Shown one piece after another: positions 35,224 to 59,128 of a stretch of 64,000 nucleotides of DNA. Source of the DNA: Hydnum rufescens UP504. Its lineage: Eukaryota; Basidiomycota; Agaricomycetes; Cantharellales; Hydnaceae. The position numbers and the translations under genes were made by a program. The notes under the pieces are model-generated. The model was not told the origin of the DNA, made no database searches, and worked only from the letters and a program-made list of their open reading frames with translations. The first letter of the stretch is position 1. Each line of letters opens with the position of its first letter. The stretch lies in NCBI GenBank assembly GCA_014904985.1, contig MU128958.1:82632-146631 (forward strand). Reading direction: 5' to 3'.

Positions 35224-36599
35224 TGTAAGCAGGAAGGTTAAGAACCAATCCAACTACTGTCCACAATGTTGAGCTGGGGACAAAAGAGGGAATCACAGAA
35301 CTAATCTGGATGTTCAGGTCTGAGTGGGGGAAGGTCTTTTGAACAGGGGGAATTGCTTGTAAGTCTGCACTATCCAAGCAATTGAAAATATGGAGTCTTG
35401 TTGGTTACTATATCACACCCTAAGAATCTCCTCTTGAGACCTTAGTTAAAGTGTAGTTAGAGTAGTCTTTTCAAGTGAGAAATCACCCAGGAACCAGCAG
35501 CAAGTCAGTGTGCTTCAGACTGGAGGGAGAACTGTTGAATTTGTGTGCTAGCTGCACCTAATATACAATCCAGACTTTGACTCAATAGAAAGTGAACAAG
35601 TCGAACTTAAGGTACATATAGGGAAAAAGAAATAAAGTTAAAATCTTCAAAACTGATGGAGATATTCCAATTTAAAGATAAAAGGGGAGATTGACACATT
35701 ACATGCTATTCCTCCTTCAATTCTGGACAAGTTCCCTTAAAGAAAAGTGGAATAGGTTGCCCTGAGTGTCTTCTCCATTAGAAATAAGAGGGTCGGAAGT
35801 AATTCACTATTTTGGAAGGTGGAGCAAAAGGGGGAGTCATGAGGAGGGAGTTGTCTTGTGAAAAATGGAATTCATGTCTGATCATTTTTCCCTTGGTACT
35901 GTTTAATGCAAATTTTTAACAGCTTTTAGGGCATGGTATTTGCAAACAAATCCGATAAGAATTGGCTTCTAAAATCAATAAATACTTCCTCAGAGTATGA
36001 ATCATGGAAAGATATTGGTACAGGGACCGCATTTTTGATCCATTCATTTCGTGTTTGGTACCATTTGATAGGTACAATTTGTATATTTCTTGGTGCAGTC
36101 ATTCTGAGTCGATCCATTCAAAACTGATGGAGAAATTCAAAAAATACTCCTTTAGAGTTGTGCAACCCCTTTCTGGATCATGTGATGGATCTGCAAGTCC
36201 AGAATCAGAACTAGGCCTGGTCCGCATCATTACATAATCACAATCCATCACCCTAAAGGCAGTAGGATGACTTGAAGGAACAGGCAAGTCAAACAGTCTT
36301 GAAGAAAGATGGCAAGTTGAATTGCCTTGTCCAAAGAAAATGGACTTGATGTAGGGCATAAACTGCCCCTTTTTGATGAGGACTGTTGAAGCCTGATGGA
36401 CAGTCAATAAATTCACTGGTGTTCATGGTAAAGGAATGAGGCAATATTATGAGTTGATAAGGGGTAGGAATCCAATAGATTCTTGAATAAATGAATGATG
36501 ATGGAATTAAATGAGCAAGGTGACAAGTAATTGATTCATTCATAAGGAAAATAGGCCTCAGATGAGGATTTTATGGTGTAGGGATTCATCCCTACAACA
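35224..36599 (+). mobile_element. Family-B LTR, copy B3 (CpG-poor)
   Basis: A 1376-bp unit, TGTAAGCAGG...CCCTACAACA, lying between gag and protease of copia-2. A clear 4-bp duplication is not visible here (GCAT on the left, GTGT on the right). Compared with B1, most CpG positions are TG or CA. Confidence 0.8.
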
Positions 36600-39071: not shown

Positions 39072-39610
39072 TTAGGACCGGCTATTCCGCACAACCTCAG
39101 CAACCGTCGCTTTCCCACCATCACCGGCTTCTATGAGGGAACAATAAGTCAGAAGGGATGAAGAAGAGTCTTAGGATTGTGTTATCTCTCGTACCGAGAT
39201 CCCCATCTCTCCAATCGCGGGGCAACAAGACCCTTCCGCCACGTCCTCCAATCGCGACCTCACGGTCCCCCGAGTGTGGAGGAGAGGCTTTATCGAGGGT
39301 ATAATGGTAATTATACCGTGTCCAAAAAAAAAACCTTGCAGCTCACCCGACGGCTGTGACTGCAGTCCCCCCTCGAAACCAATATCACCCCCAGCTCCGC
39401 CTATGGCTACAGGGCCCTCAGCATCTCCCCCAGCACCAGCCGCTGTGGAAAGGTTCTAGGCCATAAATGGGGGGGGATGTAACTTGGTTGGGAGAGATGA
39501 TACTTACTTGCTTTGCGCGCGGGCATTCTCGACCCTGGAGGCTGTGAAGAGGGTGGAGTGTGATGCGGAGGGGGTGATTGAAGGTAGTTCGTGTTGGGGT
39601 TGGATGCCAT
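39072..39610 (-). CDS. Gly-module family protein, member 1 (116 aa)
   Basis: Exons 39610-39508, 39442-39347, 39287-39195 and 39130-39072 give one open frame. All introns are phase 1 (GTAAGT...TTCCACAG, GTGAGC...GATAAAG, GTACGA...CCTCATAG). The first exon is Pro/Ser-rich (MASNPNTNYLQSPPPHHTPP) with no signal peptide. Exon 2 has TAGAGGDAEGPVAIGGAGGD, exon 3 has EVAIGGRGGRV and exon 4 has EAGDGGKATV. It shares exon order and intron phase with the other members to the right. The family and function are unknown. The second 3' splice site (AAAG) is the weakest call. Confidence 0.6.
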
Positions 39611-39951
39611 GATTAACGACAACTTCAAGTTGAACAATTGTTTCGATAAGGACGCAGTGGCGAGGGATCTCAAAGTAGAATATCTTTCCCTCACAGCAGG
39701 CAGGCATTAACCCACATGGAAGGAAATATCGCCAATATCTTCACCAATGCAAGTCACTACACCATATATGTTACAGGACGCAAGCTTTGGCTTTTCCCTT
39801 TTCAAATAAAGCACTGGAAATAAACCCCCACAAAGGGGGATCGGGTTTTGCACCTATATTGCGAGCACGGGAATGGAAATCAGAGCCCTCTGACTGTTTG
39901 AGGCAGGGAGAAAAACCTGCCAGGACTTGGTGGAGGAGATCTTCCATACCT

Positions 39952-40195
39952 TTAGTGTCCCAATGGGATATTCAGCGTGAACGTGAGTGTTATTGAGGTA
40001 CCGATCGTTTGAAGCGTCACTTGGCGGGGGTGACTCAATGCCAGCTGTAGGGGTGACGGATGCCGGGCAAAGCCAACGGGAAAGAAGCGCTGTATTAGAA
40101 AATAACTTGGATGAGAGGCGAGCCACTTCTGGTGAATCCACATTCGACGAAGACTCAAACGACTTTTTAGAGTTTGGGGAGATAGGCAGAACCAA
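39952..40195 (-). pseudogene. Isolated first-exon fragment of the Gly-module family
   Basis: Starts MVLPISPNSKKSFESSSNVD; its SSNVDS segment matches the first exon of the pseudogene copies near 54776 and 55101 (TCGAATGTGGATTCAC). An ACTAAAG|GTATGG donor-like site follows, but no module exons are found downstream before the next gene at 39610. It is probably a leftover of a duplicated member. Confidence 0.4.
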
Positions 40196-40882
40196 TCACT
40201 GGATAAGACACGCAACTTCAAGAGCTTTGAAGCTAACGTACTTTTCAATGCCTGAAAATCTCGTGAATGTGGGGCTTCGAAGTTTCTTTCTCTATAAAGG
40301 TGAGAGAACTGTCTTCATTGGCGCATGTCACTAGGCTATGTATCGAAGCACATCCTAGGTTCCTCCCTTCTAGAAACGGGGGTGCAGATGGGAAGCAAGC
40401 CTTTTTGAACATGATTTACATAAAGGGTGACCCCAGTTAGCGCCTACGTACGGCAGAATCTGGCAGATATCCAGGGTCGTGCAATGCAAATCATATGTGT
40501 TATCGCATTTCAGTGAGAACCCGGGGATAGACATGATGAGAGAGTATACGAGAAGAATGACCCAAGGAGACGGCGTCCCAAAGCCCATCAAGAAAAACGC
40601 GCTGGCTTCGGCCATTGCCGTCTTCGAACACCTGTTCCTTAAGAGGACCTATCTACAGAATTCCAATGTCAGGGACACCGTACCAGCTAATGGGTCATAT
40701 TTCTCCATCCTGACCCCAGAACTCAAAGGTATGTTTCTGGGTTCCTTTCGCTGAAGGATAACCGTGGTCTTTTCATCTCAATTACCCTCCCTTTTAACGG
40801 GATTTTCGATTTGTACCGCAAGATCGATAATCCCTACCTACATTGGGGCTACTTGGAGGCAGCACCCTGACATCCGCACGAA

Positions 40883-41795
40883 ATGGCGAGCACATCTCCT
40901 TCTAACCCCTCAAGACTACACATCTCCCATCAAAAAATGGATTCCAACGCCCGCTCACGCTTTCTCAAACGACTGGCCAAGGGTTTTCAAGGTACGAACT
41001 CATCGGAATTCAGCTCCCCTCCAACCCACTGACACCTCTCTCATCATAGGTCCACGCCGATTCGTCCAGCTCTTTTCAAAACAATTGTCTTCCCCGGATT
41101 TCTCGCTAGTAAAGCGTCCCCTTGATTCTGCCGAGCTCTCACCGCAGGTTCAGCCTTCTGAGGAATCTTCCCTAGCCCTGCCTCGCGTTGAGTCCACGGA
41201 CCACACTCAATCCAGACAATCTCAAACGGCGTTTGTTCAATCCCCACCCCCTGTACTCAACCCGAACTACGACTATCCTCTGCCCACGCTGAAAATAAGT
41301 AAGATATCCCCCCGAGTCACATGTACCCAAGTGCTAAACTCTTAGCAACAGAAACTGGTAGTGGAGGATCTGCTCAGGGTCCGATCGCAATTGGTGGAGA
41401 CGCTGGCGATATTGGCTACATCAACGAGAGGCCAAGAATTGACCTGGCGAACTCGGGTGAGCAGCAAGGTTTGTTTTCCTTTGGTAACCAGCCTCCTTTA
41501 CTACCCCACTCTCGCTATGGCCACACACAGGGATTACAAAGATCGCGATCGCGGGACGTGGTGGAAGTGTTGGCGCCATCAGCACTCTGATCAATTTGCA
41601 ACAAGAATCTCATCATGTTGATATTGGTGAGTGGTCTCAATGGTCATTTCATTCCCTCTCGCTCATGACTCTATAGAAACTGGTGTAGGCGGAACAGCCA
41701 ACTCGACCGAGATCGTGGGTGATACTAATACCCCCGATGATTCTTGGGCGCTTGGGCTACATAGAATTTCCGGTGTGCATGAAGGATCACCATAA
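40883..41795 (+). CDS. Gly-module family protein, member 2 (227 aa)
   Basis: Five exons (40883-40991, 41050-41298, 41346-41456, 41531-41626, 41677-41795) read in one frame with four phase-1 introns of 47-74 nt. Exons 1-2 encode a basic, Ser/Pro-rich N-terminus (MDSNARSRFLKRLAKG follows an upstream Met) with no membrane segment. Exon 3 has TETGSGGSAQGPIAIGGDAG, exon 4 has IAIAGRGGSVGA followed by STLINLQQ...VDI, and exon 5 has ETGVGGTANS. It is the longest and cleanest member and lies on the plus strand, opposite to member 1. The role is unknown. Repeated Gly-Gly pairs suggest a flexible or beta-type repeat. Confidence 0.7.
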
Positions 41796-43240
41796 AGGCT
41801 CGTCCTCTGGCCCGACTCTCACTCCTGGCGGTGCGACCCCGTCATTCCCGATAACTCAAAGGCGTGAACATCTTTCCATACTTTTGATTCCGAGCTGCAA
41901 ATATTGGGAATAGCAATTCTCGCATTCAATTGGATTTTCGAGTGGGAACCCCGAGGAGGCCTCATTGTGACCACTCGCGCGCTTCTGCTGTCCATACAAT
42001 GCGGAAAAATATAGGCCCAGCTATCAAGTCCGAATAACCCAGAGAAATGATCGACTGAAAGTGCCAGCTAACGGTAGCCTGAAAGCAGGTCCCTTGGGTC
42101 CATCGAGAACTCGCGGTTTGTAACCCAAGCCAGCATTTGGGGGTACAGCTTCCCCATAAGACAGGTATACATCATTAATTATATTTCAATCAACTTGAAT
42201 CAGTTTCTGAAATTCTGAATTCAAACCATCCCGATTAAGTTCGGCCCGACTCGGCCCGGGGGCCCGTACGCGAAATGGAGGGACTGAAAGTGGAAGCAGG
42301 ATTGTAGGTGTGGACAGGGCGTTCTCACCTCGCAATCCGTCACATCATACTTGTGAGTCGAGTTTATGTACGTTAGTAGTCTGGTCATCTTTCAACTCCG
42401 AGGTCTGCCACTGTTACAGGGGCCCGCGGCCGCAAACTGTAGCTTCATTTGCTGCAGCGATAGCACATGAGGAATGCAGATGAGATCCATTTTTCACTCC
42501 TTTCCCCTCCTGCTAACCCAAGTACCCCTCGGTATCGTTTATCGGAAACTGAAAGAGGCATGCATTAGTAGGGGCCTGGAATCAACATTCCGTGACCCCC
42601 CTCAAGAATATCTTACCTCAACCCCCATCCTAGCGCGCCATCTCACATTCGCGGCCGATAAACCCCATGCCCTATGAACCGTGGTAATATCAGCAAACAT
42701 TAGGGTCAATTCACCCCGCGCATATGCCTGTGCGGAGATCAACACCAATCCCGGCCGGCCTCCTCGGAGTGTTAATTTGCTATGCACACTGACTCCCGGA
42801 CACATTTCACCAAGCAAACCACATGCCCTCGTGGAAGCATATCAAGCTATCAGAGGCTCAGCGCATTCACTGTCTTGGTTGATACCTTTGGATAGTTTCG
42901 GTATTCTAATTGCTGTTTTACCCCTATTTCCACAGTTGCAGAGACACCTCCCACGGCCTGCCACACTTACGTATCTGTGATACGTGCTGTTATCCCCTCC
43001 CTCTTTGACAGACGCCAATGTACTACCCACCTGACCATGTCTAGAAATCCAATTCATGGCTTGTCTATTTCGCCTCTCCGGGAGCTTCCCGGACATATCA
43101 CGAGGTCATAGCAAAATGTTCTCCGCTGCTGGTGTCACACGTCCTCTGGCCACCCATTGCTGGGTTAACTCAGATAACTGTCGCGTCACAAATTGTTTTC
43201 TTTGCTAGACTTTGCGTGGGTGCAGTGAGTCGTTGGAATA
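41796..43240. other. Intergenic region with duplicated-flank traces
   Basis: No complete gene is seen. The GAGCTGCAAATATTGG segment near 41891 resembles the sequence after other family members (for example 49225-49250 and 52360), so flanks were duplicated along with the genes. A minus-strand stretch at about 42980-42900 has Gly-Arg-Gly and GNRGKTAI-like residues that may be a decayed module. Confidence 0.35.
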
Positions 43241-43755
43241 ATGGATAAGAATCCAAGAGCTTCTGTTTTGCATCAGCTCGACACTCTCATACTGTCTAAT
43301 GGTCGCTCGACTTTCGCGTCAACCCGTAGCCCTAGCTCCATCAGTGATGTCTGTAGCCCCACGGCTGCTGCTATCATGGTACCAACTACTGAGTTGTCCG
43401 TTGCGCAAAAGTCCCTAGCATCTCGAGCGAGGACCTCAGCTTCCTTTGGGAAAAAGAAAACAGGTATTTCCCTGCTATGTCTACGTCGTCCCCTATCCAG
43501 TTGACAAGATAAAATCCTCATCCCTGAGTCGGCCCCTCGTCACACAGAGACCTATCTAATTCCAACACAGAAGAACTCTATTGGATCTGTCTCTTCATTC
43601 CCGCTGCAAGACTGGTTATTTCCGAGTGGTGCACCTCTACTGGTATTGCAAAGACTGTCACTGTCACTCCCAAAATCCGAGTGTTTAGGGAGGGTACGGC
43701 CGACACATTGACGAGGGAGGAGATCAAGCAAGAAAGGCCTCGATTCTCGGTCTGA
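43241..43755 (+). CDS. Predicted two-exon gene, 135 aa, unknown
   Basis: Exons 43241-43463 and 43571-43755 join in phase 1 across a GTATTT...CCAACACAG intron (107 nt). The protein starts MDKNPRASVLHQLDTLIL, is Ser/Ala-rich in the first half, and has EELYWICLFIPAARLVISEW in the second. No module of the Gly family is present. The MD start and phase-1 intron resemble that family, so it may be a diverged relative. Alternatively the frame is accidental. Confidence 0.35.
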
Positions 43756-44085
43756 CAGGGAGCGAGACTCAACACCGACGTCACATGCCTCTCCGCCCGC
43801 TCCCGAAACATGTTCGAAACGCAAGGGCTTGAATCCCTACTTGGACCACAAGATCCGGACACGAGGCGAATAATGTGTTTGGTTCGGCGCAGCAGTCCAG
43901 ATCCTCTATGATTCCTCTATCGACCTGTTCGGTTACGTTTCTGTAGTTGGTGGTTGTGGAAGCGGGGTATCGCGGGCTGGAATTGCAGGATCATCCAGAG
44001 CTGGAGTACATCCGCTCGGTGGGAACGGAACCAACCATTCTCGGTCAAAGGAGTTGCCACGTAGTCCCGCGTTGAGGAGCCCCCG

Positions 44086-44576
44086 TCACCCTCTGAAGTT
44101 CGTGCTGCTAAGAATGATAATCCCCACCTTGACTCGATGGCGCAGACCCTCGACGTCCCACTTTCCCTCCCACTTCGCGTTTGTCTGTCCCGTCCACAAA
44201 TCGTAGTTGTCTATTGCATCCCCCGCATATACATCTCTAACTTCCAACACCCTCAGTTTCGAAAGCATTAGCCAAGATCGACCACACATTCTCGATTCCC
44301 CCCAATCGAACGATATCTTTCACATCGGCTGATTTGACAACACCTCATGCCCTTTGACACCAGAGCTGGGTCCCCAAGCATTTTGTTCATGTCCGAGGCC
44401 TCGTTCAATCTCAATGTCACAGATTCTGGGGTGGTGTCCATTGCCAGTTCTTGACCGCTCTTTTGATGGTTTTCTGGCGGCGCCGAACTCGTATTCCGTG
44501 AATGCTTCCCGTCTGCTGCCAATGCATCCGTATGCAGATCTTCCACCATATCTCCCAACTCTTCTGTCTGATCCAT
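44086..44576 (-). CDS. Predicted two-exon gene, 132 aa, unknown
   Basis: Exons 44576-44344 and 44251-44086 join in frame across a 92-nt intron (GTGTTG...AACTGAG, with GGCTAATGC as branch sequence). The N-terminal half is acidic (MDQTEELGDMVEDLHTDALA). The C-terminal half reads VLEVRDVYAGDAIDNYDLW and then a Trp/Lys-rich segment. No known domain is recognised. The 3' splice site is weak, so confidence is modest. Confidence 0.35.
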
Positions 44577-46471
44577 TATTATTACCGCGTCACCCAGATC
44601 GAAAAATCGGGTTTTGCAGACGAAAGTAATGAGACTCCGCCTCCCCCTTGCCGCTTACGATTTTGAGCCAGAAATTCAAGCGTCTCTTCTCCCATTCTTG
44701 AATCGGCCCTCTCAACAATATAACCAGTGACTCAAGATCATGAATTTATGCTCAGGGCGTCAAGATATGGGCTTGCTTTACGAAACAGCCTCAAAGTGCA
44801 TTCATGGCCTGAAGAAAGAGGATCGGACGCCCAGTGTAGCTCATGGTGAGATGGAAGCGATCGGTGGCGATTGCATTGCCATGTCGGAATCGCTCGTTGC
44901 GCTTGAAACTTTATTGTCATGGCTCGTCTGCTAGCTAGGTGATGCGCTTGTCGTGTCCTCCCTTACTTTTTTTTGTCTACTTAATCTACAACATGCGACA
45001 GGGAGGATACACCTTTTGTACATTGGACTGTACCAAACATAAGCAGCTCATGGCGATGTACGCCTCGAACCCATTTAATCCCCCCATCAGCGGGATTCCA
45101 AGGTACCTGGCTTCACCACGAATTAAATGCGTTGAACGGAATGGCGAGAATTCTTACGCGACCATCCTGACATCCAACTGCAATTCGAAGCCGAGTCCCC
45201 TCAACTGACGTAATGATGTACTGAGCGAGTGTGGAAGGATGAAAGAGATACGTCAGAAATGATCTTTACATACTGTACCATTTCGACCGACTATTCAGTC
45301 ACGCAGTCACACGTACACCCCTGTGAATTGAACCAAATCCGGGGGTTGTCACACGTCGCAAGGCGGTGAACTGACTTTTGGGGGGTGGTCATAGATCACT
45401 CAAAACTAAACCACACCTTTACTTAACTGCTTCTGAGCACTAGCAACCCACAAACTAGATACTGCATGGGGAAAAATCTGAAAAAAAAGCTACGTCCACC
45501 ACACCTGAACCACTTTCATCCGGCGCCAAGGAATGCCTGCGCGACCCTTGTGAACCGGCATGTCATGCATACAGTTGTTGGGAAAGACAGCAAATGGAGG
45601 GGCTATGGCACATTACCAACGTGGCCAGGAATGAATGAATTCACCCGTCATCACATGTTGGGGGGGCCGGATGCAAATCTTTATGCCACGGCACCACGCT
45701 CAAAGATTGTGAATAGTTGGTCGAAACGGCACAGCGTACTAAACACTGTTCCACTTGCATCTACAGACCACGAAGTCAACTAGCGGAGCCAGAGCCGAGC
45801 CCACAAAGGGCCGAGCCATTGCAGAGAATAGGCATTGGGAAGTCAAATCCCATGTGAAGATCTCGACATCCGTGGACGATATCAAGTACAAGCATCATGA
45901 AAATGGCCATAATAGCCCAGTGGCCTTAGTTGGGTAAACACTGGATCATGTGATGATTGTCTGGAAAAACAGTCACGACAATATAAAGGGGTGGCTGCTA
46001 TGACTCCAAGGCACTCACGCAGTACGTACCCAGCACCAATGCTACCTGTGAGCTAAGAGAACATGGGCGTCGAAAGTGGGACCAAAAAATGATCCCAAAG
46101 AGCGGACCAGGTATGGTCTAGATCCTCCCAGCCTGCCCTGTCGATTGTTCACCAAGAATGACCAAAGGATTGAAGTACCTCAACAAAAATCCAATACTGT
46201 AATTCTTGGAATTTCTATTAGGGAAGGGAAAGCTGTGCTCCTTAATGGGAGACCATCGCCAGAAACCCAGACAGGGCTGCTTAGTTTAAAAAGGGAAGAT
46301 CAGGACTCGACACTGGTACAGTAATACCCTCCTTATTTGCGCTGATACAGCCCACTGACACCTGTCTAGTCAGGATGCTTTTACCATAATGTCTCTTCAA
46401 TTCCTTTGGAGCTGGGTGCCCCTCACCCAGCGACATCGCCAGGCTCCTATTGTTCAAGTTGAGAGATCTCA
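44577..46471. other. Region with only short, unsupported frames
   Basis: Frames at 44740-44934, 45466-45783 and 46076-46324 show no motif, no consistent splice pattern and no similarity to neighbours. I do not call genes here. Confidence 0.35.
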
Positions 46472-46998
46472 ATGATGGGTTCATCCGAATCATCCCCCTC
46501 AGTCGCAGATGTGGATCGCACTGAGTCACCTCCCCCGATGGATTATCCATTGTCACCGGACCAAGGAAATCCCTCCTGGTATAGTAAGGATCATATCTCC
46601 CCCATCACTCACCTCCTATTCATTGTTTGGGGCCTTGCTTTAGCAACTGGTCATGGAGGAGATGCCGTGGGGCCCGATAGCACTGGTGGAGATGGTGGCA
46701 ATATTGACTTCACTGGATTGATGTCAGAGAACCCTCGTGAGTCCACAGATGCTTTGGTAGATGTGGATGCAGCATCCTTACAACCATGGGTTTGTTATAG
46801 CCTCTGTTCTAAATGCAGAAAATCGCGCGATTGGGGGAAGGGGTGGCAATATCAGGATGCCACACGAGCCAACCGGTCCCACCATTATGAGTAAGACCGA
46901 CAAACAGTCAATTTCTATTCTCTCTGGCTGATCAACCTTCAATAGGCACCGGCCAAGGGGGAATGCACGAACTTCAGACCCCCCGTATCAATGGATAA
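46472..46998 (+). CDS. Gly-module family protein, member 3 (109 aa)
   Basis: Exons 46472-46583, 46644-46736, 46819-46890 and 46946-46998 form a single frame with three phase-1 introns (GTAAGG...CTTTAG, GTGAGT...AAATGCAG, GTAAGA...TCAATAG). The first exon is Ser/Pro-rich and acidic (MMGSSESSPSVADVDRTE). Exon 2 has TTGHGGDAVGPDSTGGDGGN, exon 3 has AIGGRGGNIRM and exon 4 has STGQGGMHE. This is the shortest member. The donor GTAAGG was chosen over GTATAG because it gives phase 1 and an open frame. Confidence 0.6.
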
Positions 46999-48154
46999 TA
47001 ACTTGGTTGTGGAACATCTTGAGCCGCCTTGGAATTGGCTATGCATCCAAGGGTGCATTGGCATAGGATGACTTCACAGTTTAGCCCTGATCTGCCTCTT
47101 AACTCCGTGCTGTTATACCCTCTAGTTGGCTCCTTTGCTATTGCACGCAAATAGACGACCTGAAGGGCTCCACAGTTTGTTGTTTGATTCTAGCTCTTAA
47201 ATGTTCACAAGTGTTTCCAGGTGGCCGTGGCCTATTGCACTGCGGCGTTACTCTCCCTCGCTACATTCATCAAAAAATTCGTCCAATGTGAAATTGGGCG
47301 GATCAATAATGCCTTGTGCTAACTATTTTCGATTTCTTATTTTCCGCCGTTTGGCGAATACGAGGCACCCTGTCCTTCATTCTGTGTTCATTGGCTCTCT
47401 TCCCTATGCGTAACGACAGAGTCGCTAATCATTCCGGTTCTAGGGCAAGAACAATGACATGTCTTGGGGTGGCTCGAGCTTAAGGCGCTGGCGGAATTCT
47501 TAATTTGACCAGTTTTGAGGCACTTTGAGGCGAAGAGCACTTTAGGCCTGCTCGAGTCGTATTATATTTCGGGGCCACATCCCAAGACCGCAGGGGAATG
47601 TAATGTTGATCCTCTTTCAACTTACGAATTTTATCATGAGACCTGCCTCGGAGGGCTTACTTCTATCGCTCATTTGGTTCTGGCGGCGCCAGTAAAGAGT
47701 ACTACAGTAACTCTCGGACTGCTGCGCCGGGGATGTTAGTTGCAGTTCCTGTTTTCCTGAGCAACGCAATCCAAGTACGCATGGTAAGTCAAACTAAGAG
47801 TGGCCCCAGTTGGGGGGCGGTCACAATTTCTACCGGATTCTTCAGAATAAGAGGGGTTTGGTGGGGTTGGGCAAGAAGATCCTGCGGATCACTTGCCCAT
47901 CCTGTGCTCTTGTCAATTATCATGAGACAACGGACGATAGGAACCGAGGCCACAAGTCCTGTAAGAGGACTGGACACTAAACACAGTGGGAGCTAACTCG
48001 GATTTAGAGACACCCGAACGACAGACAGTGAAGAAGAAGTAAGATCGGGTAGAAGCGGGAGAGCCGGGCCAAGGACAGAAAGCGAGGGTGATATCAATAC
48101 CACAATAGATGGACGGGCAATCCTATGCTCCAAGAGTTCTCGGGGTTGTTTACC
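46999..48154. other. Intergenic region with no gene recognised
   Basis: Short frames only (for example 47201-47413 and 47733-47996). A plus-strand stretch at 48040-48110 could be a relic of a Gly-rich module but has no intact splice borders. Confidence 0.35.
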
Positions 48155-48867
48155 TCAGTTAGGGCGACTGGTCGCATTTCCGCCTGCCGCATTTCCACTG
48201 GTTGCATTTCCACCATTGCCAAAATCTAAGAGCAAGTCGGGTCAGAGAGAATGAAATTACTCATAAAATTGGTATCTCTCACGGATATCAACATTCTTCT
48301 GGTCTTTAACTTCTCGGAGAAGGGTGATCAGCGACGGCAGATCAGCCCCTCCACCCTCCCCACCAATCGCCGCCGAAAGAGGTTGTCCCTTGGTCTTTAA
48401 GGCGGTGACTATGACAAAGAGAGTAGCAATGAGGATGGCATGTCTACCGTATAAAAACCTAGTAGCTTACCTAGGCCCAGGGTATCTCTTCCGGCTCCTC
48501 TAGGGCCAAGTTGGTTACCGGGCCCCCCAATGGCGAGGGTGGGATGAGTAGCATGGCCTCCATCACCGAGCGCTATGACAAGGCATTTAGCGCTTGAAGG
48601 AATATGATGCAGTGGGTGGACCATACATAATTTGAGGAGACCTTGGTCGGCAGTTGAAGTTGGCTGGTTATTTGGACCTTGCCGGACAGGTGGACCCTGC
48701 TGGGCGGCCGGGCCAGGCCAGGCGTTTGGACCATGCTGGGCGGCTGGATCATACTGGCTAGTTGGACTTGGCTGGGAGCCTCGATCTCTGTTCGGAGGGG
48801 GTGTATCCGCCCTTGGACCCGCGGGTGAAGAAGTGTATCGAATAAAGTGCTGTATGCGTGAGCCCAT
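48155..48867 (-). CDS. Gly-module family protein, member 4 (179 aa)
   Basis: Exons 48867-48627, 48572-48471, 48408-48283 and 48225-48155 read in one frame with phase-1 introns. The first exon is Pro/Gln/Gly-rich with repeats of GP spaced by 7-12 residues (AAQHGPNAWPGPAAQQGPP). Exon 2 has ALGDGGHATHPTLAIGGPGN, exon 3 has AAIGGEGGGADL followed by SLITLLREVK...VDI, and exon 4 has FGNGGNATSGNAAGGNATS. The Ser/Leu...VDI tail of exon 3 parallels member 2. The role is unknown. An upstream Met at 48981 is in frame, but 48867 fits the other members better. Confidence 0.6.
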
Positions 48868-50261
48868 GGTGAGGTCCTTGGATGAGGGAGCCTGACGTGC
48901 TAGTGCAAGACCTTGCTTAGGTGGTATATGTTCGCGTATCAGCACAGTTGCCTTGAATTTTCCCTCCTTATATGGGACCATTGGCCCAGTGGCAGATCAC
49001 TGGAATATGTATCCAGTGCAAGGTCTTCATTGTTTCTATTAGACCATAAATAAAGTGCATCTGAGGGGATGGTGAGCACTCTTCGCCTGTGAGATAGTAC
49101 CGTCCCATTACGACCGTAGGTGTTGAGGTATCCATCGGTGGCGGGGCGTCGGACCTTGATTATGTAAAACAGGAGTTTTCCGGTCACTTTTCTCGAATGT
49201 GACTGGACAACGAACACTTTGAATCTAGAGCTGCAAATAATGGCAAAGCCATGCGAAGGCAGAGTAGAGTGTGACCTGAAGAAGACGTTTTGCGAATCTA
49301 CACTTCATACGTAGCGTATCAAGGCTAAATGCACTAATTCGAGAAAGCTCGAAGTTTAGGTGTGGTATAGCAGGTAATGTGTTGGATCTAGCTTTTTCTG
49401 CAAGGCTCCTACACCAATCGATTATGGAGCGTGTATTGGAACCAAGCCTTTTCTGTATCCCCCCAGGCGCATGCCTGAGACTTGGATTCACTACTCGGGA
49501 GCGACTTGGCGGTAACATAATAGATATATAATCTTTCTCCCTCTGGCTATTCGACCCGACCCTGCCACTGTTGCAAAGTTATTTGTCCATCTCTCTTATT
49601 TCGAACGCCCACCAGTACCACAGGAATGCAGGAGTAATCGTGTGCTCCTCGGTGTAATGTTTCTCCATTTCCGCTCAGCAGTCATCCCTCAAACCCGTCT
49701 CGGGGCTATACAACCTAGCTTTTTGAAGTTCACTTTCTCTTTTCAAGCCGTAAGCTTCCTCAGAATTGCAATGAAAATGAATGAGTAATCAGGCAAATCA
49801 ATTCCCGTACTCTTAGCGCCCGGCCGAGTATATAAATTTGATCTTGTGTGGCGTTCTGGGCCCTGGAGAAACACTTCGTGGCCAGGGTCACTCCACGTCA
49901 TTCCCCTTTGGGTATGACTCGTTTTCAAATTCAGGTCAAGGAGAAGGGCGAAGATGACCATAGCTGGGTGTATCTGCTCCCTGGAAATGACGTACCGTAC
50001 GCCGAACGAGTTGGTGTAAACCCATGGTAACCCGGCAGAGGTTGTCACCCTCGTGGTTTCCTCGCGGTATAATCCAAAAGTAGCAGTGGACGGAGCGGCA
50101 CGCGAGAATCAGATACCGCGAGGGGTGGCTTCTTGTCAAGAACGAAAGGGAATCGAGCCTATGAATCGGACGAATACAACTTGGCCACTGAACCCAAAGA
50201 TATCTGAACTTGATCCATATATTCAAGGCATAAGCCATGATAAGCCCGCAATGAGGTGTCA
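48868..50261. other. Intergenic region with family-flank remnants
   Basis: The minus-strand frame 49518-49225 ends in sequence like the 3' end of member 6 (TGCCATT-TTTGCA...TTCAAAGTGT), so it is probably a duplicated gene tail. Frames at 49743-50048 have no motif. No complete gene is called. Confidence 0.35.
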
Positions 50262-51087
50262 TCATTCATCCTGCATCGGATACACAGGTGGCACAAGATT
50301 GCCAGGATCATTACTATCAGTTTGATCATGCGTGGTCTCTGTGGACTCTGCATTTCCGCCTTCGCCGGTTTCTAGGACTCGCTAGTCAGAGGGAGTGAAG
50401 ATGACCTTTATAGTTGCACGTATCTCTCTCACCAAAGTCAACGTCCAAATAGGTTCGTTGCGCATCAAGCAGCATGCCGAGTGACTGAATTGTTCCACCA
50501 TGTCCTGCTCTTGCTTCTACCACTCCGGTCCCTGCGCGCGAAGCGGAGGCCATAAAGAGGGCGTAAAGATAAAGATGATGCAGCCATCAAATTTCTACCT
50601 AGCGACTTACCCAGGTTTGCTGAATCCTTTCCGGACTTCGCGTCAGGAGCGCCAACGCGAATATCGCCGCCGTTACCACCAATGGCACGGTGTCCCTTGG
50701 CAGTTCCTCCCCCTCCGGTTTCTGCGACGAAACGGTAAGTCCTTGGAGACATGTGATGATGGAATGGGGGAGATAGTTACTCATTTTCATCGACCCCTTA
50801 GGAGATTCGTGCGCCGGCGGCAATCCGGATGATAGCGATGTAGAGGGCAGTTGATGTTGCGCCCATGGAGTGTGGTTCGGACTCGGGGGCAGAAGTGGCT
50901 GAAAGCTTCCTGCGACCGCGAATGATCCCCCCGAGGGAGCGGGATTGACGGGGTTGGGGGAAGCCACTGTCACATCCAAAGAAGGATTTGGCTGAGACAA
51001 GATGCTCAAGATCTGAGCGAGCTGCTCAGGTGAAAGCGAATTCGGTGGGGACTCCATTAAGAGCTTTGCTAGATTGGAGGGATCCAT
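50262..51087 (-). CDS. Gly-module family protein, member 5 (208 aa)
   Basis: Exons 51087-50781, 50721-50611, 50531-50433 and 50371-50262 give one frame. Introns are all phase 1 (GTAACT...GTCGCAG, GTAAGT...GCGCGCAG, GTGAGA...AGTCCTAG). The N-terminus is MDPSNLAKLLMESPPNSLSP, followed by a Ser/Pro/Asn-rich stretch. Exon 2 has TGGGGTAKGHRAIGGNGGDI, exon 3 is diverged (GVVEARAGHGGTIQSLGMLL) and exon 4 has ETGEGGNAEST. The pseudogene at 53941-54776 is its closest relative by first-exon sequence. Confidence 0.7.
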
Positions 51088-52355
51088 ATTTGACTAAGAG
51101 ACACGCGGCGCCAAGGGGTTTTAAGCCAAAGAACTTTGCACTGGTTGCGTGAGCTTGGTTACCCCCTCTGAATGCAGTGCGCTGACGTCGTCGTTTTCTT
51201 TAGCGCACGCCCCGCCAGGCTGTGTACCGAGGCCCGAGGGGTCCCCCATGTTGAACGGAGGTGTTCAAAAAGGAAATAGGGACCTTGGGAATATAATCTC
51301 CAAACAAAGGCCCACTAAGCGCCCAGGTACGCGATTTTCGAAGCAGTAAGGGGACCATGTGGTTCAGGTGGAGATACGTGCATGTAGCGGGACTTGCAGA
51401 TCAAATATGTCGAGAAGAATTGCCCACAAAACAGCGTCCTCAACACACGAGTGCCTCTAACACACGTCAAACACGTGATCTTGGCAATCACGACAACAGT
51501 CGACAAGGTATCGCGTCGGGGGCATGAACCCTCTGTTCTGTATTCGGGAAAAATTGCAGCTGACTTAAATATCGGCTCTAAACCAGGTTCACAAAGGGAG
51601 CTGTGATTATGGATTGTCATGAAGGCCAATTGTCTGCCAGCGCATTCCAAGTGGCTCCAGTAGTGATCAGATAAATGGCCTTCTGGTTCTGCCTAAGAAG
51701 CAATAACAATCGTGTTTTTCCCATCCTAGAACTCCCCGGCGAATTGTTTCTGACGCATATATCCCCCCCTGTGCGTCAGGGGTATAAGATTTTAGTCATT
51801 TGAGACCAATGATATACGTAAATGCATATGGGAGGCTTTGTTTCTTCTTTTCACGGGTTTTGCGTTTATAAAATGAATACCGCTCTGAACTGACAATCCA
51901 TAAGAGTCGGGGGCTGAAATCAGACTACGTGAAATGGTTACATAACACCTCCTTTACTTAGATAGGTAACCTCCCCTTACAGAAGATGTAAACTCTCCGG
52001 GGTCATCTATTGCTAACGTTGGGGGTTTGCACTTCCGTGGTCTACGTGTGTGTCTTAGTGCTCGGGAGGGGGCCTCTTACAATTACTTCAAGATCCTAAC
52101 ATAGCCTCTACGTCGCCCCTTTTGTGAAACGCATGCAGAAAGGCAGGATCGTGAAGATAATGATACTTGGGTGGCTTGAATTATGTGGAATCAGCACCGA
52201 TGGGTCATGGCCACCCAATAGCCCGGTGCGACAGCTGCGTTACGCATTCATAAGGAAATTAAGGGGATTGCGCAGCTATTATTAGTGGCGCATGCGGTGT
52301 CACGTCGGAGGAGATAGGAATCAAGGCCGCGAGTTGGACATTTGACACTTTGAAT
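51088..52355. other. Intergenic region, duplicated at about 55.2-55.75 kb
   Basis: The segments AGGCTGTGTACC (51218) and CACAAAGGGAGCTGTG (51591) to CGCATTCCAAG (about 51650) have counterparts near 55214 and 55659-55724. No gene is recognised. A minus-strand frame at 51650-51315 has no motif. Confidence 0.4.
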
Positions 52356-53134
52356 TCAGAAATATTCCAATTGCAAAGAATGGCATAGGAGGGACACCAC
52401 TCTGGCATAGGAAATAGTACAGTGGGGTCTCGTGAAGCGCCGATCAACACGGAAAAACAAGAAAAAAAAATCAACGCTGCTTTGGATGCACGGGAAATCC
52501 CAGAGTGGTTTACGAGTTCCCAGAAGGGTTATACTGTCATTCACGGGTACGAGTGCTTTTCCCCCGGGGCCAGATTCTAAAAAGGAATGATTAGGATGAG
52601 GGTATGAAGTGACTCTTAGTAGGACCGCATTATTTCTCTTACCAATATTGGCCGTTTCTTCAGGTGGCACCACAATATTTCCAGCGTTCCCTCCCACCGT
52701 CATTCCCTTGAGGTTTTCTGTAGGCGGGGGAGAAACTGGTCCGGGCGCGTAGCGCTAAGTATACGGTATCCAGCACGAATGGGCGTTCTGGCTCACCTGA
52801 GTCCGTTGGTATTTCCTTGGAGACAGTAATGTTTCCGCCGTTACCACCAAAGGCGGACTTGCCCTCGGCGTCTCCTCCGCCACCGCTCTCTGCGCCAAGG
52901 CACAATGGAATAAATTGGATGCATAGAACACGGAGAGGGACGGTTTTTACTTATCGTTCGCGGCGTAGCCACGGGGGCCGGCGAAAATCCCTGCGGGACT
53001 GAAGTAAAGGGTGTCTGAGAGTGGGGGTACGATGCATATTCCGGTTTCGGTGTTTTCGTAAGGGCCTGGTCTGAGGAGTCTGATTTATTGGCCCCCAGGC
53101 TCGCATGCAGCACGTCAAGGAACCATGAAGACAT
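52356..53134 (-). CDS. Gly-module family protein, member 6 (190 aa)
   Basis: Exons 53134-52951, 52889-52797, 52717-52643 and 52576-52356 form one frame with phase-1 introns (GTAAAA...TTGGCGCAG, GTGAGC...CGCCTACAG, GTAAGA...CTTTTTAG). It starts MSSWFLDVLHASLGANKSD. Exon 2 has SGGGGDAEGKSAFGGNGGNI, exon 3 has MTVGGNAGNIVV and exon 4 has ESGPGGKALV followed by a longer tail with PCIQSSVDFF and LLCHSLQLEYF. PCIQSS is shared with the pseudogene to the right. The tail may contain a further unrecognised intron. Confidence 0.65.
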
Positions 53135-53940
53135 CGTTGAAGTTGAACAGTGTTGGATCAGGACTTGGTGAGGTCGCTATCCAAGAGAAATCAAGTTACA
53201 AGGGATTTTTCAGGCAATCGAGTTGCACTGCCATGAAGGTTTAGCGCGATGTAAACAGAGAAGAAAATCATCTTATCAACCCAAGCCACAGGGCTATGCC
53301 AGGCGGCACAACGCTTTCATTTTACCATTTCAAAAAAAGGTGCTCTGGATCTGGATGTCCTCCAAAGATAATTCCATAACAGGGCCGACAAGCGCCTAAG
53401 GTCGCAAAAAATCTCCTCTCACATGAGACGGGGATGAGGAGGGGACTGCTTAACTTACCCAGCCCAACTGGGACACAAAAATTTGAAAGAAGCAGGAACC
53501 GTGAAAACCGAAGGAATGAGCGCTTAGCCTAGTCTCAATTTGTTTAGAGGCGAGGCGCCGGCGGGAAATTTGCATCCGGAACCCAACCGCGCCCGATCCT
53601 CAACCCACACTCGTGAAGTTCAGACCGGCTCCACTGGATCCAAAGCCTCCGTCAGCATAGACACATTCTAGCGATTTGGCGTGTGTATCCGATGCCCTCT
53701 AGTTATACCGGACGGTGAAAGGCAACAATAGGGGAATGCATTGTGTGGCACCCATATGTACAGATGGGTAGAAATCCTTTCGGTAGGGCGGCTCCATGTG
53801 CCCTAATAATACCTTGTTTGGCTATGTCAAACGCTTGCGAACGCACGCGTTGAATGCAACCTGCTTGTCCCCACTGTCGGTGAATGAGCAGCGGTAGCGG
53901 CGAAGAAATGGAGGGATCAGAGGGGGTGGAAAGAAGAAAG

Positions 53941-54776
53941 TCAGGTCCTAGTATCGATACTGCTTTGGATACACGGGCAAGTCCAGGGCAGTCTAAGGCC
54001 CGTGGGAATTGTTGCTATCATCGCGATCTCGTTGGGCTCTGCGTCTCCACCAACGCCAGTTTCTGCGCGGAGTCCTTAGCCAAAAGGGGGAGCGAAGATC
54101 ACGTTCAAAACGGCGCGTATCTTACCGAGATCAACTCTCGAAAAGTTTCGCTGAATTTGAATCTTAGTCAGCATACTGGACGAACCAACGTTCCTATCTC
54201 GTCCGATTGCGATTGCAGTTCGGCCCCCTGCGAATAAAGCGGAGGTCATAAGAAATGTAGCAGTAAGGCGATGCATTCACTAAATGCAACCCTGCTGACT
54301 TACCCAGGTGTGCTGGATTCTTTGTTGGCTTCCCTTCGGTGGCACCAACACTGCCTCCGTCACTGCCAACGGCAAGGAAACCCTTAGCAACTGCTCCCGG
54401 ACCAGTTTCTTTTCCAAAGTATTATGAATCAATCAATTGAAGGCATACGACGATGTGGTGAGTATTTTCAGTGACCCGTTGGAAATAGGTGATATGGCGG
54501 GAATATGGGTGGTAATGATGGAACGGACGCATGAAGTTACGAACAGGGAGTACAGTTCGGGGGATTGGATGGATCAAGGCCACCTGCAGTTGGGGGTGAG
54601 GTGATCCCCCAGAGGGTTGGGAGAGGCGCCGGCAGGGTTGGGTGGGTGAAACCATCGTTAAAGAAGGATCCTTCTTGGGCCGCAATTTGGACAACAGCTC
54701 AGTGAACCCTGTGTGAATCCGCGTTCGGCGAGGTCTCGATCACTTTTAAGAACTTAGCGGGATCGGCGGAATCCAT
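53941..54776 (-). pseudogene. Gly-module family pseudogene (member 7)
   Basis: Exons 2-4 (54408-54304, 54227-54126, 54062-53941) remain open and in phase 1: TGPGAVAKGFLAVGSDGGSV, then AGGRTAIAIGRDRNVGS, then ETGVGGDAEP with an LPWTCPCIQSS tail. Exon 1 (from 54776, MDSADPAKFLKVIETSPN) hits a stop after a small frameshift relative to member 5. The donor site after it has CT in place of GT (AAAATACTCACC against AAAATGAGTAACT). So the modules are intact, but the start of the gene is broken. Confidence 0.65.
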
Positions 54777-55228
54777 CATTGGGTAAACGTCGCGCGGCAA
54801 AACACTGTGCAGACCCTGCCGCAGTAGGTTAGCGACATATACACTCTGCCTGTGCACTTGGGGTTTACGTGTAAGCGAGGGAAGTCACTAGGCTATGTAC
54901 CCACCCACCTGCGGTTGGGGATGAGGTGATCCCCCAGAGGGTTGGGATAGGCGCCGGCAGGGTTGGGTGGGTGAAACCATCGTTAAAGAAAGATCCTTCT
55001 TGGGCCGCAATTTAGACAACGGCTCAGTGAGCTCTGTGTGAATCCACATTCGACGAGGTCTCGATCAATTTTAAGAACTTAGCGGGATCGGCGGAATCCA
55101 TCATTGGGTGAAAGTCGCGCGGAAAAACACTGTGCAGACCCTGCCGCAGTAGGTTAGCGACCTGTACCTCTGCCTGTGCACTTGGGGTTTACGTGGAAGC
55201 GAGAGAAGTCACTAGGCTATGTACCTAC
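54581..55228. repeat. Tandem duplication, 325-bp unit
   Basis: Copy 1 (54581-54905) and copy 2 (54906 to about 55228) share sequence from CACCTGC(A/G)GTTGGGG to GTCACTAGGCTATGTACC with scattered substitutions. Each holds the broken first exon of the Gly-module family (start codons at 54776 and 55101) and its upstream region. The GTCACTAGGCTATGTA segment also recurs at 40325. Confidence 0.85.
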
Positions 55229-56020: not shown

Positions 56021-57838
56021 ATGTCGAAAAGAGCGGCCATAGACGGAGTGGCGAATGACGGACAGCCGTTCCAGAAAACGCGGGCCTCGGCGAAAGATGG
56101 TTTCTCTACCGCAAAACGACCATCTCTTCCGGCGGTTGATGATGGTATGGGCGAGTTCGAAGACGAGTGGGAGGACGACATTGAGAGCGATGAGAGCGTC
56201 GTTGATCGGGCCGCAGAAGAGCTAGGTGGTGAGTGGTCTGATGAGCTGTTTCCTGAGCTCGCCTCAATTGATGAATCTTATCAATTCGATCCACTGCGAT
56301 TGTTTAGATTTAGATTTGGAAGATGAAGTACTCCCCGCTGTGGAGGAGGAGGACGAAGCACCGCCTACGGAATCAGTATATCTTCCCGGGAGCCACGTAC
56401 TTGGAGAAGATGAAATCCTGGAGCCCGATCAGTCTGTCTATGAAATGCTACACAGGATGAACGTAACATGGCCATGTCTTTCTTTCGATATCCTGCGCGA
56501 TGCGTTGGGCGACGAGCGACGAAGGTATCCTGCGACAGCGTACGTTGTTACCGGGACACAAGCCGATATTGCAAAAAATAACGAAGTAATAGTAATGAAA
56601 ATGAGCCAGCTGCATAAAACCCAACGCGACGATGGTAGATAATGTCTCTTTGCGGCTGAATTATTGATGGATTTATCCTAATCAATTCACGTTCGATATC
56701 GCACCTATAGATTTCTCGGATGATGAAGACGATGAAGATGATGCCTCAGTTGACGAAGATGCGATATTAGAATTCCGCTCTATTCCCCACGTAGGGGGCG
56801 TAAACCGCGTCCGGGCCCAACCTCTTCCTATGAACGCAGGCCTTCCACCGGTTACCGACCCATACCATGTCGCAACCTGGGCGGAAACAGGCAAAGTCCA
56901 CATCTGGGACGTTCGACCCTTGTTAGAATCCCTGGATGTGCCGGGATACTCGATCGATCGAACACGAACAAATTCGCCTGTGTTTTCCGTTGTGGCCCAC
57001 GGACGCGCGGAGGGATTTGCACTGGACTGGTCCCCCCCTTCATCATCGCCGTCCTCGGGAGACGTAACATCAACTGGGTCGAGACTGCTCTCTGGCGACA
57101 TCCACTCCAAGATCTTTCTCACATCTACGACCCCATCTGGGTTTAATACTGCACCCCAGCCATTTGCCTCGCATACTTCATCCGTGGAAGACTTGCAGTG
57201 GTCACCCAGTGAATCGACGGTATTCGCGTCGTGTTCGAGTGACCGCAGTATTAGAATTTGGGACGTAAGAGTGAAGGGGCGAAAAAGTGTTGTGGGGGTT
57301 CAAGGTGCCCATGACAGTGATGTGAATGTCATCAGCTGGAATAGGGGTACAACGTACCTTCTTGCAAGCGGGGGAGACGAAGGAGGGATCAAGATTTGGG
57401 ATCTTCGCAGCTTCAAAGGGTAATATCGGGCTTACTTGTTATGATTCCTCCTTTGCTCATGGACATATATTCCTCTCCGTTTGCAGGGTGTCTACACCGG
57501 CTCCTGTCCCGGTTGCCTCCTTCACGTGGCATTCGGCGCCAATAACATCGATTGAATGGCATCCAACAGAAGACTCGATTTTCGTGGCCGCAGGGGCAGA
57601 CGAGCAAATAACATTGTGGGATCTTTCTGTCGAACAGGACGACGACGAAGCGGGAGCTGCGACGAAAGAAATTGTAGGTGCCGATGGGCAGAAACTCAGA
57701 GACGTACCGCCACAACTGTTGTTCGTGCACCAAGGCCAAAAGGACGTGAAAGAGGTGCATTGGCATGTACAAATTTCAGGCGCGGTGGTATCTACAGCAG
57801 CGGATGGGTTCAATATTTTCAAGACTATCTCTGTGTAA
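56021..57838 (+). CDS. RRB1: Glutamate-rich WD-repeat protein, ribosome assembly chaperone
   Basis: Exons 56021-56228, 56308-56634, 56711-57419 and 57487-57838 give 531 aa, close to yeast Rrb1 (511). Intron borders are GTGAGT...TGTTTAG, GTAGAT...CCTATAG and GTAATA...TTTGCAG. After a basic start ([10 protein letters not shown]) comes an acidic region, then the CAF1C-type block [20 protein letters not shown] (about residues 114-133) typical of this family, an Asp/Glu run, and WD repeats: [10 protein letters not shown]...[27 protein letters not shown] and [20 protein letters not shown]. Known relatives bind ribosomal protein uL3 and act in nucleolar 60S assembly. The 3' end overlaps the convergent gene below by a few bases. 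Confidence 0.9.
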
Positions 57839-59128
57839 CACGTGAACGTATGCAGGTGTGCTTTGGATAATCAGCGGAAAGCAGAATATAGGAGGGTGGC
57901 AACATATGATAAGTATCAACGGCTACAATGTTTACTTGAGTGCGGTGCATCCCTTCAATACATCCCAAGGCTATTGTTTCCTTTGGGCGAACGAATCTGT
58001 CGAAGAGAGTCAGCTTCATTCCTACTGTGTGCATCGTGTCGCGAACCTTTTGTATGTTCTGCGAGGCAGCCAAGGTCAATATTGAGTCGCAGGATACAAG
58101 AAAACGGCGTACTTTTTGTAAGATATCGAAAAGAATCGCATAAACATTCCGGATGTCATGCATGTGCTGTCGGGCCATGAATAATTGCTTTTCATCATGA
58201 TCACGCAGGGAAATCTGAATATGAAGGGAAACTCCTTAGTAGCGAGGATCAGCAAAAGAGGTGGGGAAGGGACGAACGGCGTAGTCCTCGACGTTTGGAT
58301 ATTTAATCAGTTTTGAGGCCAATTTTGCACGGTTCAGATGCTGGTTCCGTGAAGCATCTCGAAGATTATAGGCGCTTTCTTGAGCGCGAGTCAATTCGTT
58401 CAAAACCTCTGGCGGTTCATATGATTAGTCATGCGGAAAAAATATGCTTAGGTCGTCGTAATGTCATGCCTTCTTGTATTTGAACACCTAGTACGAAGAC
58501 ATCAGGAGGTGCGTGCCCGGTCTCCTTCTCTTCTAGACGTACCGAAATTATCTCCGCTGCATGCAGAAACAAGGTCATTGAGCACCAAAGAAATTGATAA
58601 GGATCCTAAAGACGTACTCCTCGATTCTGATAAATGGAGATGTCAGGTCGACAAAAATGCCATGTAGACAAGACATACCGAGGCATGGTAAGATTGATCC
58701 ATCTTCATGGTACAGTGAATATAATTCAGACTGAAGCAATGGGAACCAAACTCACAATTTAACCTTGTCCTGATGAAGATACATCAGTTTCAGAAGTTCA
58801 TATGTGACCTGTGAATGATACTCACGCAAAGGTCGATCATGTCCTCGAATTCATTCTTATTCCGCTCCTGGACCTTCCTTATGTGATGGTTGGGTAATAC
58901 ACGTTGTGGATATATTGCACCACCAGGACTGCGGTGATCAGTATCGGCTTCACCATTCGAGATATCTCCGGTTGTCCGCTTTCGCCGCTTTGCGTCTGGT
59001 TCTGAGGTCGACGTTGAGGGAGGAGGATAAACTCGGGTGTCGGTAGACAACGCGGCGTGAGATATATGATATTCCGAAGCAGGTTCATTTGTTTCGTCGA
59101 TTAGGGCCTGCAACTCTCTGCACATCAT
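57825..59128 (-). CDS. Multi-exon gene, convergent with GRWD1, not identified
   Basis: Several frames line up on the minus strand. Exon 59128-58826 ([20 protein letters not shown], then Lys/Arg-rich) ends at GTGAGT. A later exon (about 58423-58278) reads [20 protein letters not shown] and [16 protein letters not shown] terminal exon from 58214 reads [20 protein letters not shown] and [14 protein letters not shown], probably with a 54-nt intron at GTACGC...CTCGCAG, and ends near 57825. The middle exons (58.4-58.8 kb) are not resolved. The protein looks helical and charged. It seems conserved in style, but I cannot name it. A start upstream of 59128 is possible, because GATGTGCAG there could be a 3' splice site. 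Confidence 0.5.

What the first reader, a model, noticed from the sequence alone, without database searches (positions are those of the whole stretch)
39072..55228. Cluster of unnamed genes built from phase-1 Gly-rich module exons
Six genes on both strands and one pseudogene share a layout: a variable Pro/Ser-rich first exon, then three short exons carrying TGxGGxAxG, AIGGxGGxI and ETGxGGxA patterns. All introns are phase 1, so any module exon could be skipped, swapped or duplicated without frame loss. Each reconstructed member has a length exactly divisible by three, which is strong support. I do not recognise the family. It sits right beside a mobile-element island and is flanked by duplicated debris, so it may be expanding quickly.
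Basis: seen in the sequence. Interest (0 to 1): 0.88.

Follow-up and report, generated by a model that had tools for sequence, protein, structure and literature searches.

The report
Glycine-module genes matching immune-receptor tips
A hedgehog mushroom carries a cluster of small genes built from glycine-rich protein modules resembling the one at the very front of many of its own immune receptors, so they may be partners of those receptors, but this has not been tested.

Summary
The window lies in Hydnum rufescens UP504 (Cantharellales). Six four- or five-exon genes and one broken copy share a variable N-terminus and three Gly-rich modules; all 19 modelled introns are phase 1. Intronless database contigs of about 1 kb cross every modelled junction of g2 and g6 relatives, so splicing is very likely real. 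No Pfam match (four of six proteins scanned).

New: the module resembles something. A single phase-1 exon of the same pattern (TGxGGx[AG]...GGxGGD[VI]) is the N-terminal exon of many NLR immune receptors in this genome. It is present in 17 of the 20 best-scoring NACHT genes, and 69 of 73 such exons found genome-wide lie just upstream of NLR sequence. A profile of NLR exons run over 2137 window peptides places ten family modules in its first eleven hits. On contig C40 an intact stand-alone gene lies about 400 bases from a Gly-NACHT-WD40 receptor.

The layout parallels HET-S/NWD2: one motif on the receptor, several on a separate small protein. Best explanation, at about even odds: an NLR partner family acting by homotypic Gly-module assembly. 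Binding, assembly and cell death are untested, no effector domain is recognised, and no NLR was found near the window cluster.

The parts
39072..39610 (-). g1: 4 exons (39508-39610, 39347-39442, 39195-39287, 39072-39130), 116 aa; Pro/Ser-rich N-terminus plus modules 1-3
   Evidence: Model; open in all five copies compared; dN/dS
39611..40936 (.). Spacer of the divergent pair g1/g2, duplicated with it; longer in the C139:97-101k copy
40937..41795 (+). g2: 5 exons (40937-40991, 41050-41298, 41352-41456, 41531-41626, 41677-41795), 207 aa; cationic amphipathic stretch at the N-terminus, then modules 1-3
   Evidence: Model; intronless relatives P0124-P0126; amphipathicity
46472..46998 (+). g3: 4 exons (46472-46583, 46644-46736, 46819-46890, 46946-46998); third module frameshifted relative to the L071 paralogue
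48155..48867 (-). g4: 4 exons (48627-48867, 48471-48572, 48283-48408, 48155-48225), 179 aa; relative of the stand-alone genes on C40
50262..51087 (-). g5: 4 exons (50781-51087, 50611-50721, 50433-50531, 50262-50371), 208 aa
   Evidence: public models P0001 (paralogue) and P0132 (3' part)
52356..53134 (-). g6: 4 exons (52951-53134, 52797-52889, 52643-52735, 52356-52576), 196 aa; no close second copy found in the genome
   Evidence: intronless relative P0130; genome search
54000..54779 (-). g7: broken copy (stop in its first exon), with degenerate modules 1-3
54905..55125 (-). Partial repeat of the 5' part of g7, 93% identical over 221 bases

Best explanation
The window genes encode small stand-alone proteins that repeat, in their C-terminal part, a Gly-rich module that is probably homologous to the N-terminal module of this fungus's NLR receptors. 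Most likely they are partners or adaptors of those NLRs. An activated NLR oligomer would bring its Gly tips together, and these would recruit or template the multi-module protein by like-with-like assembly, as NWD2 does with HET-S. The variable N-termini would set the outcome; in g2 relatives a positively charged amphipathic stretch could touch membranes. Shown: the gene models, splicing in relatives, the NLR exon and its position, the shared pattern and intron phase, and one neighbouring receptor and stand-alone gene. Inferred: homology rather than convergence (likely), binding, assembly, and any death or immune outcome.
For: The Gly exon is found in 17 of the 20 best-scoring NACHT genes. Of 73 such exons found genome-wide, 58 lie 144-209 bases upstream of a scored NACHT on the same strand and 0 on the wrong side or strand; 69 of 73 are upstream when a linker/P-loop query is added. 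A profile of 19 NLR exons puts ten family modules in its first eleven hits among 2137 window peptides, best E 0.003, while the best reversed peptide has E 4. Ten of 12 stand-alone first modules beat all 500 shuffles of themselves. Both kinds of exon are phase 1 on both sides, and the NLR splicing is seen in intronless P0019 and P0059. On C40 a Gly-NACHT-WD40 receptor and an intact stand-alone gene are neighbours. The receptor-one, partner-several layout is that of NWD2/HET-S (PMC9815663 section 6).
Against: No recognised effector domain in the four proteins scanned. No NLR on C50, C139 or C502 among the 150 NACHT matches scored of 279, nor the 150 linker matches scored of 259. Most E-values are weak (0.003 to 1.4 for the ten). 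Modules 2 and 3 beat all shuffles in only 3 of 6 and 2 of 6 cases, and in the reverse direction only 5 of 19 NLR exons do. hhalign of the family with P0019 has E 5.7e-4 but probability 29%. Single-sequence genome searches do not join the two sets. By eye, the C40 stand-alone modules are not especially like the tip of the NLR beside them. Constraint on the proteins is weak.
Confidence: 0.5

Rival explanations
1. Exon by-products or decoys: N-terminal NLR exons (phase 1 on both sides) were captured and duplicated into short genes that have no dedicated signalling role, or that only dampen NLR assembly by capping Gly tips.
For: Phase-1 exons move without frame loss. Six of ten g2 copies are broken or partial. 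dN/dS of g1 is 0.52-0.89 in nine of ten pairs and 1.5 in the closest pair.
Against: All five g1 copies are open, four g2 copies are open, and dN/dS of g2 is 0.40-0.57. Spliced-looking relatives exist in the databases. The pair g1/g2 is kept together through duplication.
Confidence: 0.23
2. Convergence: both sets are low-complexity Gly-rich sequences of separate origin, and the stand-alone proteins are structural or condensate-forming proteins unrelated to NLRs.
For: Single-sequence searches do not connect the sets. The reverse profile test is weak, 5 of 19. A phage-associated protein, P0134, shows a similar pattern at E 8.8. Predicted structures have very low confidence.
Against: Whole-window ranking against reversed peptides, the shuffle test, the same motif order, the same intron phase, and the concentration of the NLR-type exon upstream of NLRs, 69 of 73.
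Confidence: 0.17
3. Small secreted proteins for the mycorrhizal partner.
For: The genus is described as ectomycorrhizal (start of the abstracts of PMC4858670 and PMC12892097 in the listing), and the proteins are short and variable.
Against: By eye no N-terminus has the hydrophobic core of a signal peptide; no predictor was run.
Confidence: 0.05

Closest known systems
HET-S/NWD2 two-component amyloid signalling of Podospora anserina (PMC9815663 section 6; PMC10197012 passages)
   Same: One short motif at the N-terminus of an NLR, several copies in the C-terminal part of a separate protein, and one neighbouring pair with a NACHT-WD40 receptor (C40).
   Different: The motif is Gly-rich; no HeLo or other known effector domain; three modules carried by separate exons; the window cluster has no NLR found nearby; amyloid folding unknown.
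Amyloid-like NLR motifs of Agaricomycetes (NLR05/08/22/29/44 and others, PMC9815663 sections 19 and 28)
   Same: N-terminal position, dozens of NLRs per strain, Agaricomycetes.
   Different: Described as HRAM-like with hydrophobic residues and a G[DN] pair; words for glycine richness do not occur in the main text. The motif logos are in figures that I could not see, so overlap with one of these motifs is not excluded. Almost no partner-side motifs are reported there.
Gly-rich polyproline-II / polyglycine-II bundles (PMC8409303 abstract and section 10)
   Same: Dense Gly; GGX phasing in 7 of 20 NLR tips.
   Different: The stand-alone modules do not show the phasing (0 of 12); each module is short; no structure is known.

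Membership tests
NLR/partner amyloid signalling system (HET-S/NWD2 kind) | A short motif at the N-terminus of an NLR, before the NACHT domain | tested here: met
   17 of 20 sampled NLRs; 69 of 73 exon places
NLR/partner amyloid signalling system (HET-S/NWD2 kind) | The same motif repeated in the C-terminal part of a separate protein | tested here: met
   Pattern shared beyond composition for module 1 (10 of 12) and in a whole-window scan; weaker for modules 2 and 3
NLR/partner amyloid signalling system (HET-S/NWD2 kind) | An effector domain (HeLo or similar) in the N-terminal part of the partner | tested here: not met
   No Pfam match at E 1 or less for g1, g2, g5, g6; g3 and g4 not scanned
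NLR/partner amyloid signalling system (HET-S/NWD2 kind) | The partner gene is adjacent to an NLR gene | tested here: inconclusive
   Yes on C40; no NLR found on C50, C139 or C502 in capped searches
NLR/partner amyloid signalling system (HET-S/NWD2 kind) | The motif forms templated amyloid | not testable with these tools
   Structure models have mean pLDDT 35.6 and 32.6
Known fungal motif families HRAM, PP, sigma, PUASM | Match to the family profile | not tested
   The profiles were not at hand; only the text descriptions were read
NLR (NACHT STAND) proteins | NACHT or related nucleotide-binding domain | tested here: not met
   The stand-alone models are 109-208 aa with no such match in the four scanned
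Polyglycine-II bundle proteins | Regular GGX phasing | tested here: inconclusive
   7 of 20 NLR tips, 0 of 12 stand-alone modules
Small secreted proteins | N-terminal signal peptide | tested here: inconclusive
   None seen by eye in the models; no predictor was run

The most novel reading that the evidence does not exclude
Hydnum NLRs signal through a Gly-rich tip that assembles by a Gly-helix (polyglycine-II-like) or other packing rather than the beta-arch amyloid of known fungal systems, and a cluster of dedicated multi-module partner genes has evolved with it, including the divergent pair g1/g2 in which g2 bears a cationic amphipathic stretch as a possible membrane-acting end. I know of no such receptor-to-partner coupling in fungal immunity.
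Probability: 0.13. Interest if true: 0.9.

Novelty: new variant of a known kind. Interest (0 to 1): 0.7.

Why it matters
In Basidiomycota, NLR-side motifs are abundant while partner-side motifs are seldom found (PMC9815663 section 28). Here one species has dozens of NLRs with one kind of Gly-rich tip and a short list of stand-alone, multi-module genes with the same kind of module, some with spliced-looking relatives in the databases. That makes the question of what basidiomycete NLR tips bind directly testable.

Tried and rejected
Known domain: no Pfam match for g1, g2, g5, g6 (g1 and g2 scanned in an earlier version with slightly longer module ends). Fast expansion: most copies are roughly 70-85% identical and many are broken. 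Positive selection: not claimed; dN/dS is 0.52-0.89 in nine of ten g1 pairs and 1.5 in the closest pair (8 nonsynonymous, 2 synonymous changes), 0.40-0.57 in six g2 pairs, and 0.43 in one g3 pair that includes a frameshifted tail. Structure prediction gave no usable model, so no fold search was run. P0134 and its IMG/VR relative L099 look like convergence. NLR homologues elsewhere: one search found 4586 and listed 120; 112 have a P-loop by my pattern and only P0019 and P0059 have two or more Gly motifs before it. Many listed proteins look like unspliced reading frames, so absence in other fungi is not shown. One search scored only the 7996 candidates that shared most words. From memory only, from no call: I believe Gly-rich NLR N-termini occur in Mycena. 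No description of such a motif turned up in my searches of the CC-licensed PMC library or in term look-ups in three papers; figure logos are not held.
Full report
WHERE IT IS. The window is G000:C50:82632-146631 in a genome of 63,185,524 bases in 539 contigs. Proteins named Hydnum rufescens UP504 match it: P0129 contains the first three exons of window g2, P0131 the start of window g6, P0132 the end of window g5, and P0127 and P0128 match the C139 copies and lie on a public contig of 171339 bases, exactly the length of C139. C50 is 297412 bases here; the public contig is listed as 301414. I take the species as settled.

THE OBSERVATION. Motif scanning, frame reading and explicit exon models confirm six genes and one broken copy. 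Each has a variable, mostly Pro/Ser-rich N-terminal part, then module 1 ([ST]GxGGxAxG..AIGGxGGxI), module 2 (AIGGxGGxI) and module 3 (ETGxGGxA), with departures in single members. All 19 introns in the models are phase 1; the phase was partly assumed when sites were chosen. Ten aligned family members keep 14 invariant columns, 11 of them Gly. The last module of g3 is frameshifted relative to L071, and the g5-like copy in L072 has a frameshift in its first exon.

SPLICING AND EXPRESSION. Public model P0123 equals, letter for letter, the model I had made for the C50:201k copy; that copy was one row of the query. P0124, P0125 and P0126 (contigs of 958-1017 bases; 71-75% identical to g2) run uninterrupted across all four intron positions, and P0130 (contig of 935 bases) across all three g6 positions; P0130 moved my g6 intron-2 acceptor by six codons. 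The database does not state the sample type; spliced transcripts are the likely source, and processed gene copies a less likely one. Against: public models P0129 and P0131 differ from mine downstream.

PARALOGUES AND SELECTION. Relatives lie at C50:33-46k, C50:185-202k, C139:96-140k and C502. g1, spacer and g2 recur together as a divergent unit at five places, the window included; in one of them the spacer is longer and only part of it aligns. All five g1 copies are open with the revised sites, two with GC donors; four g2 copies are open (one with a GC donor and an early stop near its end) and six are broken or partial. NG86 dN/dS: g1 0.52-0.89 in nine of ten pairs and 1.5 in the closest; g2 0.40-0.57 in six pairs; g3 0.43 in one. 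Intron distance for g1 is 0.03-0.34, of the size of its dN (0.03-0.40). I read this as weak constraint.

THE LINK TO NLRS. A DNA pattern for AIGGxGG hit 42 places, against 7 for the control pattern, some outside the clusters. Of five such loci that I read, L010, L027 and L035 have one Gly-rich exon directly before an NLR P-loop; Pfam gives NPHP3_N at 2.1e-18 and 4.7e-17 for the two tested, L010 and L035. I then took the 20 highest-scoring PF24883 matches (150 scored of 279 candidates), read 560 bases upstream of each and found the exon in 17 of 20: L079, L087 and L096 lack it, and the one in L097 is frameshifted. Two NLR-exon queries give 73 distinct places. Of these, 58 lie 144-209 bases upstream of a scored NACHT on the same strand and 0 on the wrong side or strand; 57 of the first 103 NACHT rows but 1 of the last 47 have it, so it marks one class of NLR. 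With a linker/P-loop query (150 scored of 259) the count is 69 of 73. Intronless proteins P0019 and P0059 start with a few residues, then the Gly module, then NACHT.

IS IT THE SAME MODULE? A profile of 19 NLR exons (16 from the sample plus L010, L027, L035), run with bias correction over all 2137 reading-frame peptides of 20 or more residues in the window, ranks family modules first to fifth and ten of the first eleven; E runs from 0.003 to 1.4 for these ten, and the best reversed peptide has E 4. With bias correction off, ten of 12 stand-alone first modules beat all 500 shuffles of themselves (g4 and g6 do not); modules 2 and 3 do so in 3 of 6 and 2 of 6 cases; in the reverse direction 5 of 19 NLR exons do. 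hhalign of the family with P0019: E 5.7e-4, probability 29%, 26 columns. Single-sequence genome searches in either direction do not connect the two sets. Homology is likely, not proven.

A RECEPTOR AND A STAND-ALONE GENE SIDE BY SIDE. On C40 an NLR has its Gly exon at 39551 (TGHGGAAADGGIGGRGGDVHLHSHN), its NACHT at 39817-40290, and in the same frame an open WD40 stretch to a stop at 43240-43242; 39831-41349 was not read. About 400 bases on, in convergent orientation, lies an intact g4-like stand-alone gene at 43654-44267; matches to a second copy lie at 48056-48663 (not read). By eye its modules are not especially like that NLR's tip. P0059 shows the splice joins of a close relative of this NLR.

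HOW IT MIGHT WORK. Step 1, shown: NLRs carry one Gly module at the tip and separate genes carry three. Step 2, inferred: NLR oligomerisation clusters the tips. Step 3, inferred: the clustered tips recruit multi-module proteins by like-with-like contact. Step 4, inferred: the N-terminal part acts. In five g2 relatives it holds a stretch like GLLKRLxKAF..PRRFV with net charge +4 to +7; its hydrophobic moment is reached by 9, 1 and 6 of 1000 shuffles in g2, P0125 and L071, but by 93 in P0123 and 418 in P0124; the six other N-termini tested show nothing. Amyloid or another Gly packing stays open: 7 of 20 NLR tips and 0 of 12 stand-alone modules show GGX phasing, and structure prediction was uninformative.

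LITERATURE. PMC9815663 (abstract, sections 6, 19 and 28 read; term look-up) sorts fungal NLR motifs into nine classes; its text does not use the words glycine or Gly-rich, but its logos are not held. PMC4986451 and PMC10197012 (passages seen) do not mention glycine. PMC8409303 (abstract and section 10 read) covers Gly-rich helical bundles. PMC10890737 was seen in passages only.

VERDICT. The family is real, spliced in relatives, and tied by pattern, exon phase and one neighbourhood to the NLR repertoire. The partner function is my best explanation at about even odds.

Noticed in passing
window 40937-41795 and 52356-53134: Public models of window g2 (P0129) and g6 (P0131) read through introns that the intronless relatives remove, so the deposited annotation of both looks incomplete.
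   Followed up: partly
G000:C40:39551-48663: A Gly-NACHT-WD40 receptor with highly alike WD40 repeats beside two stand-alone g4-like genes; the second copy was not read.
   Followed up: partly
genome G000, PF24883 rows 104-150: A second, lower-scoring NACHT class almost without the Gly exon (1 of 47 rows against 57 of 103).
   Followed up: no
L073 and L076 (C50:185k and C139:107k): The two g1 copies differ at about 10 coding sites, 8 of them nonsynonymous; they may be alleles or a recent copy.
   Followed up: no
window 1-38000: Mobile-element island: integrase zinc-binding piece at 6062-6631, a weak integrase-core match at 6641-7228 (below the curated cut-off) and a copia-type piece at 34679-35377; most 2-kb bins have lower GC than the cluster.
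   Followed up: partly
window 56226-63700: CAF1C_H4-bd and WD40 matches at 56226-57838 border the cluster; a sub-threshold ORC4 C-terminal match lies at 63248-63700.
   Followed up: partly
P0134 and L099:2950-3252: A small Gly-rich protein with a similar GNGGDA..AIGGNGGDAG pattern, with a relative on an IMG/VR viral contig; probably convergence.
   Followed up: partly
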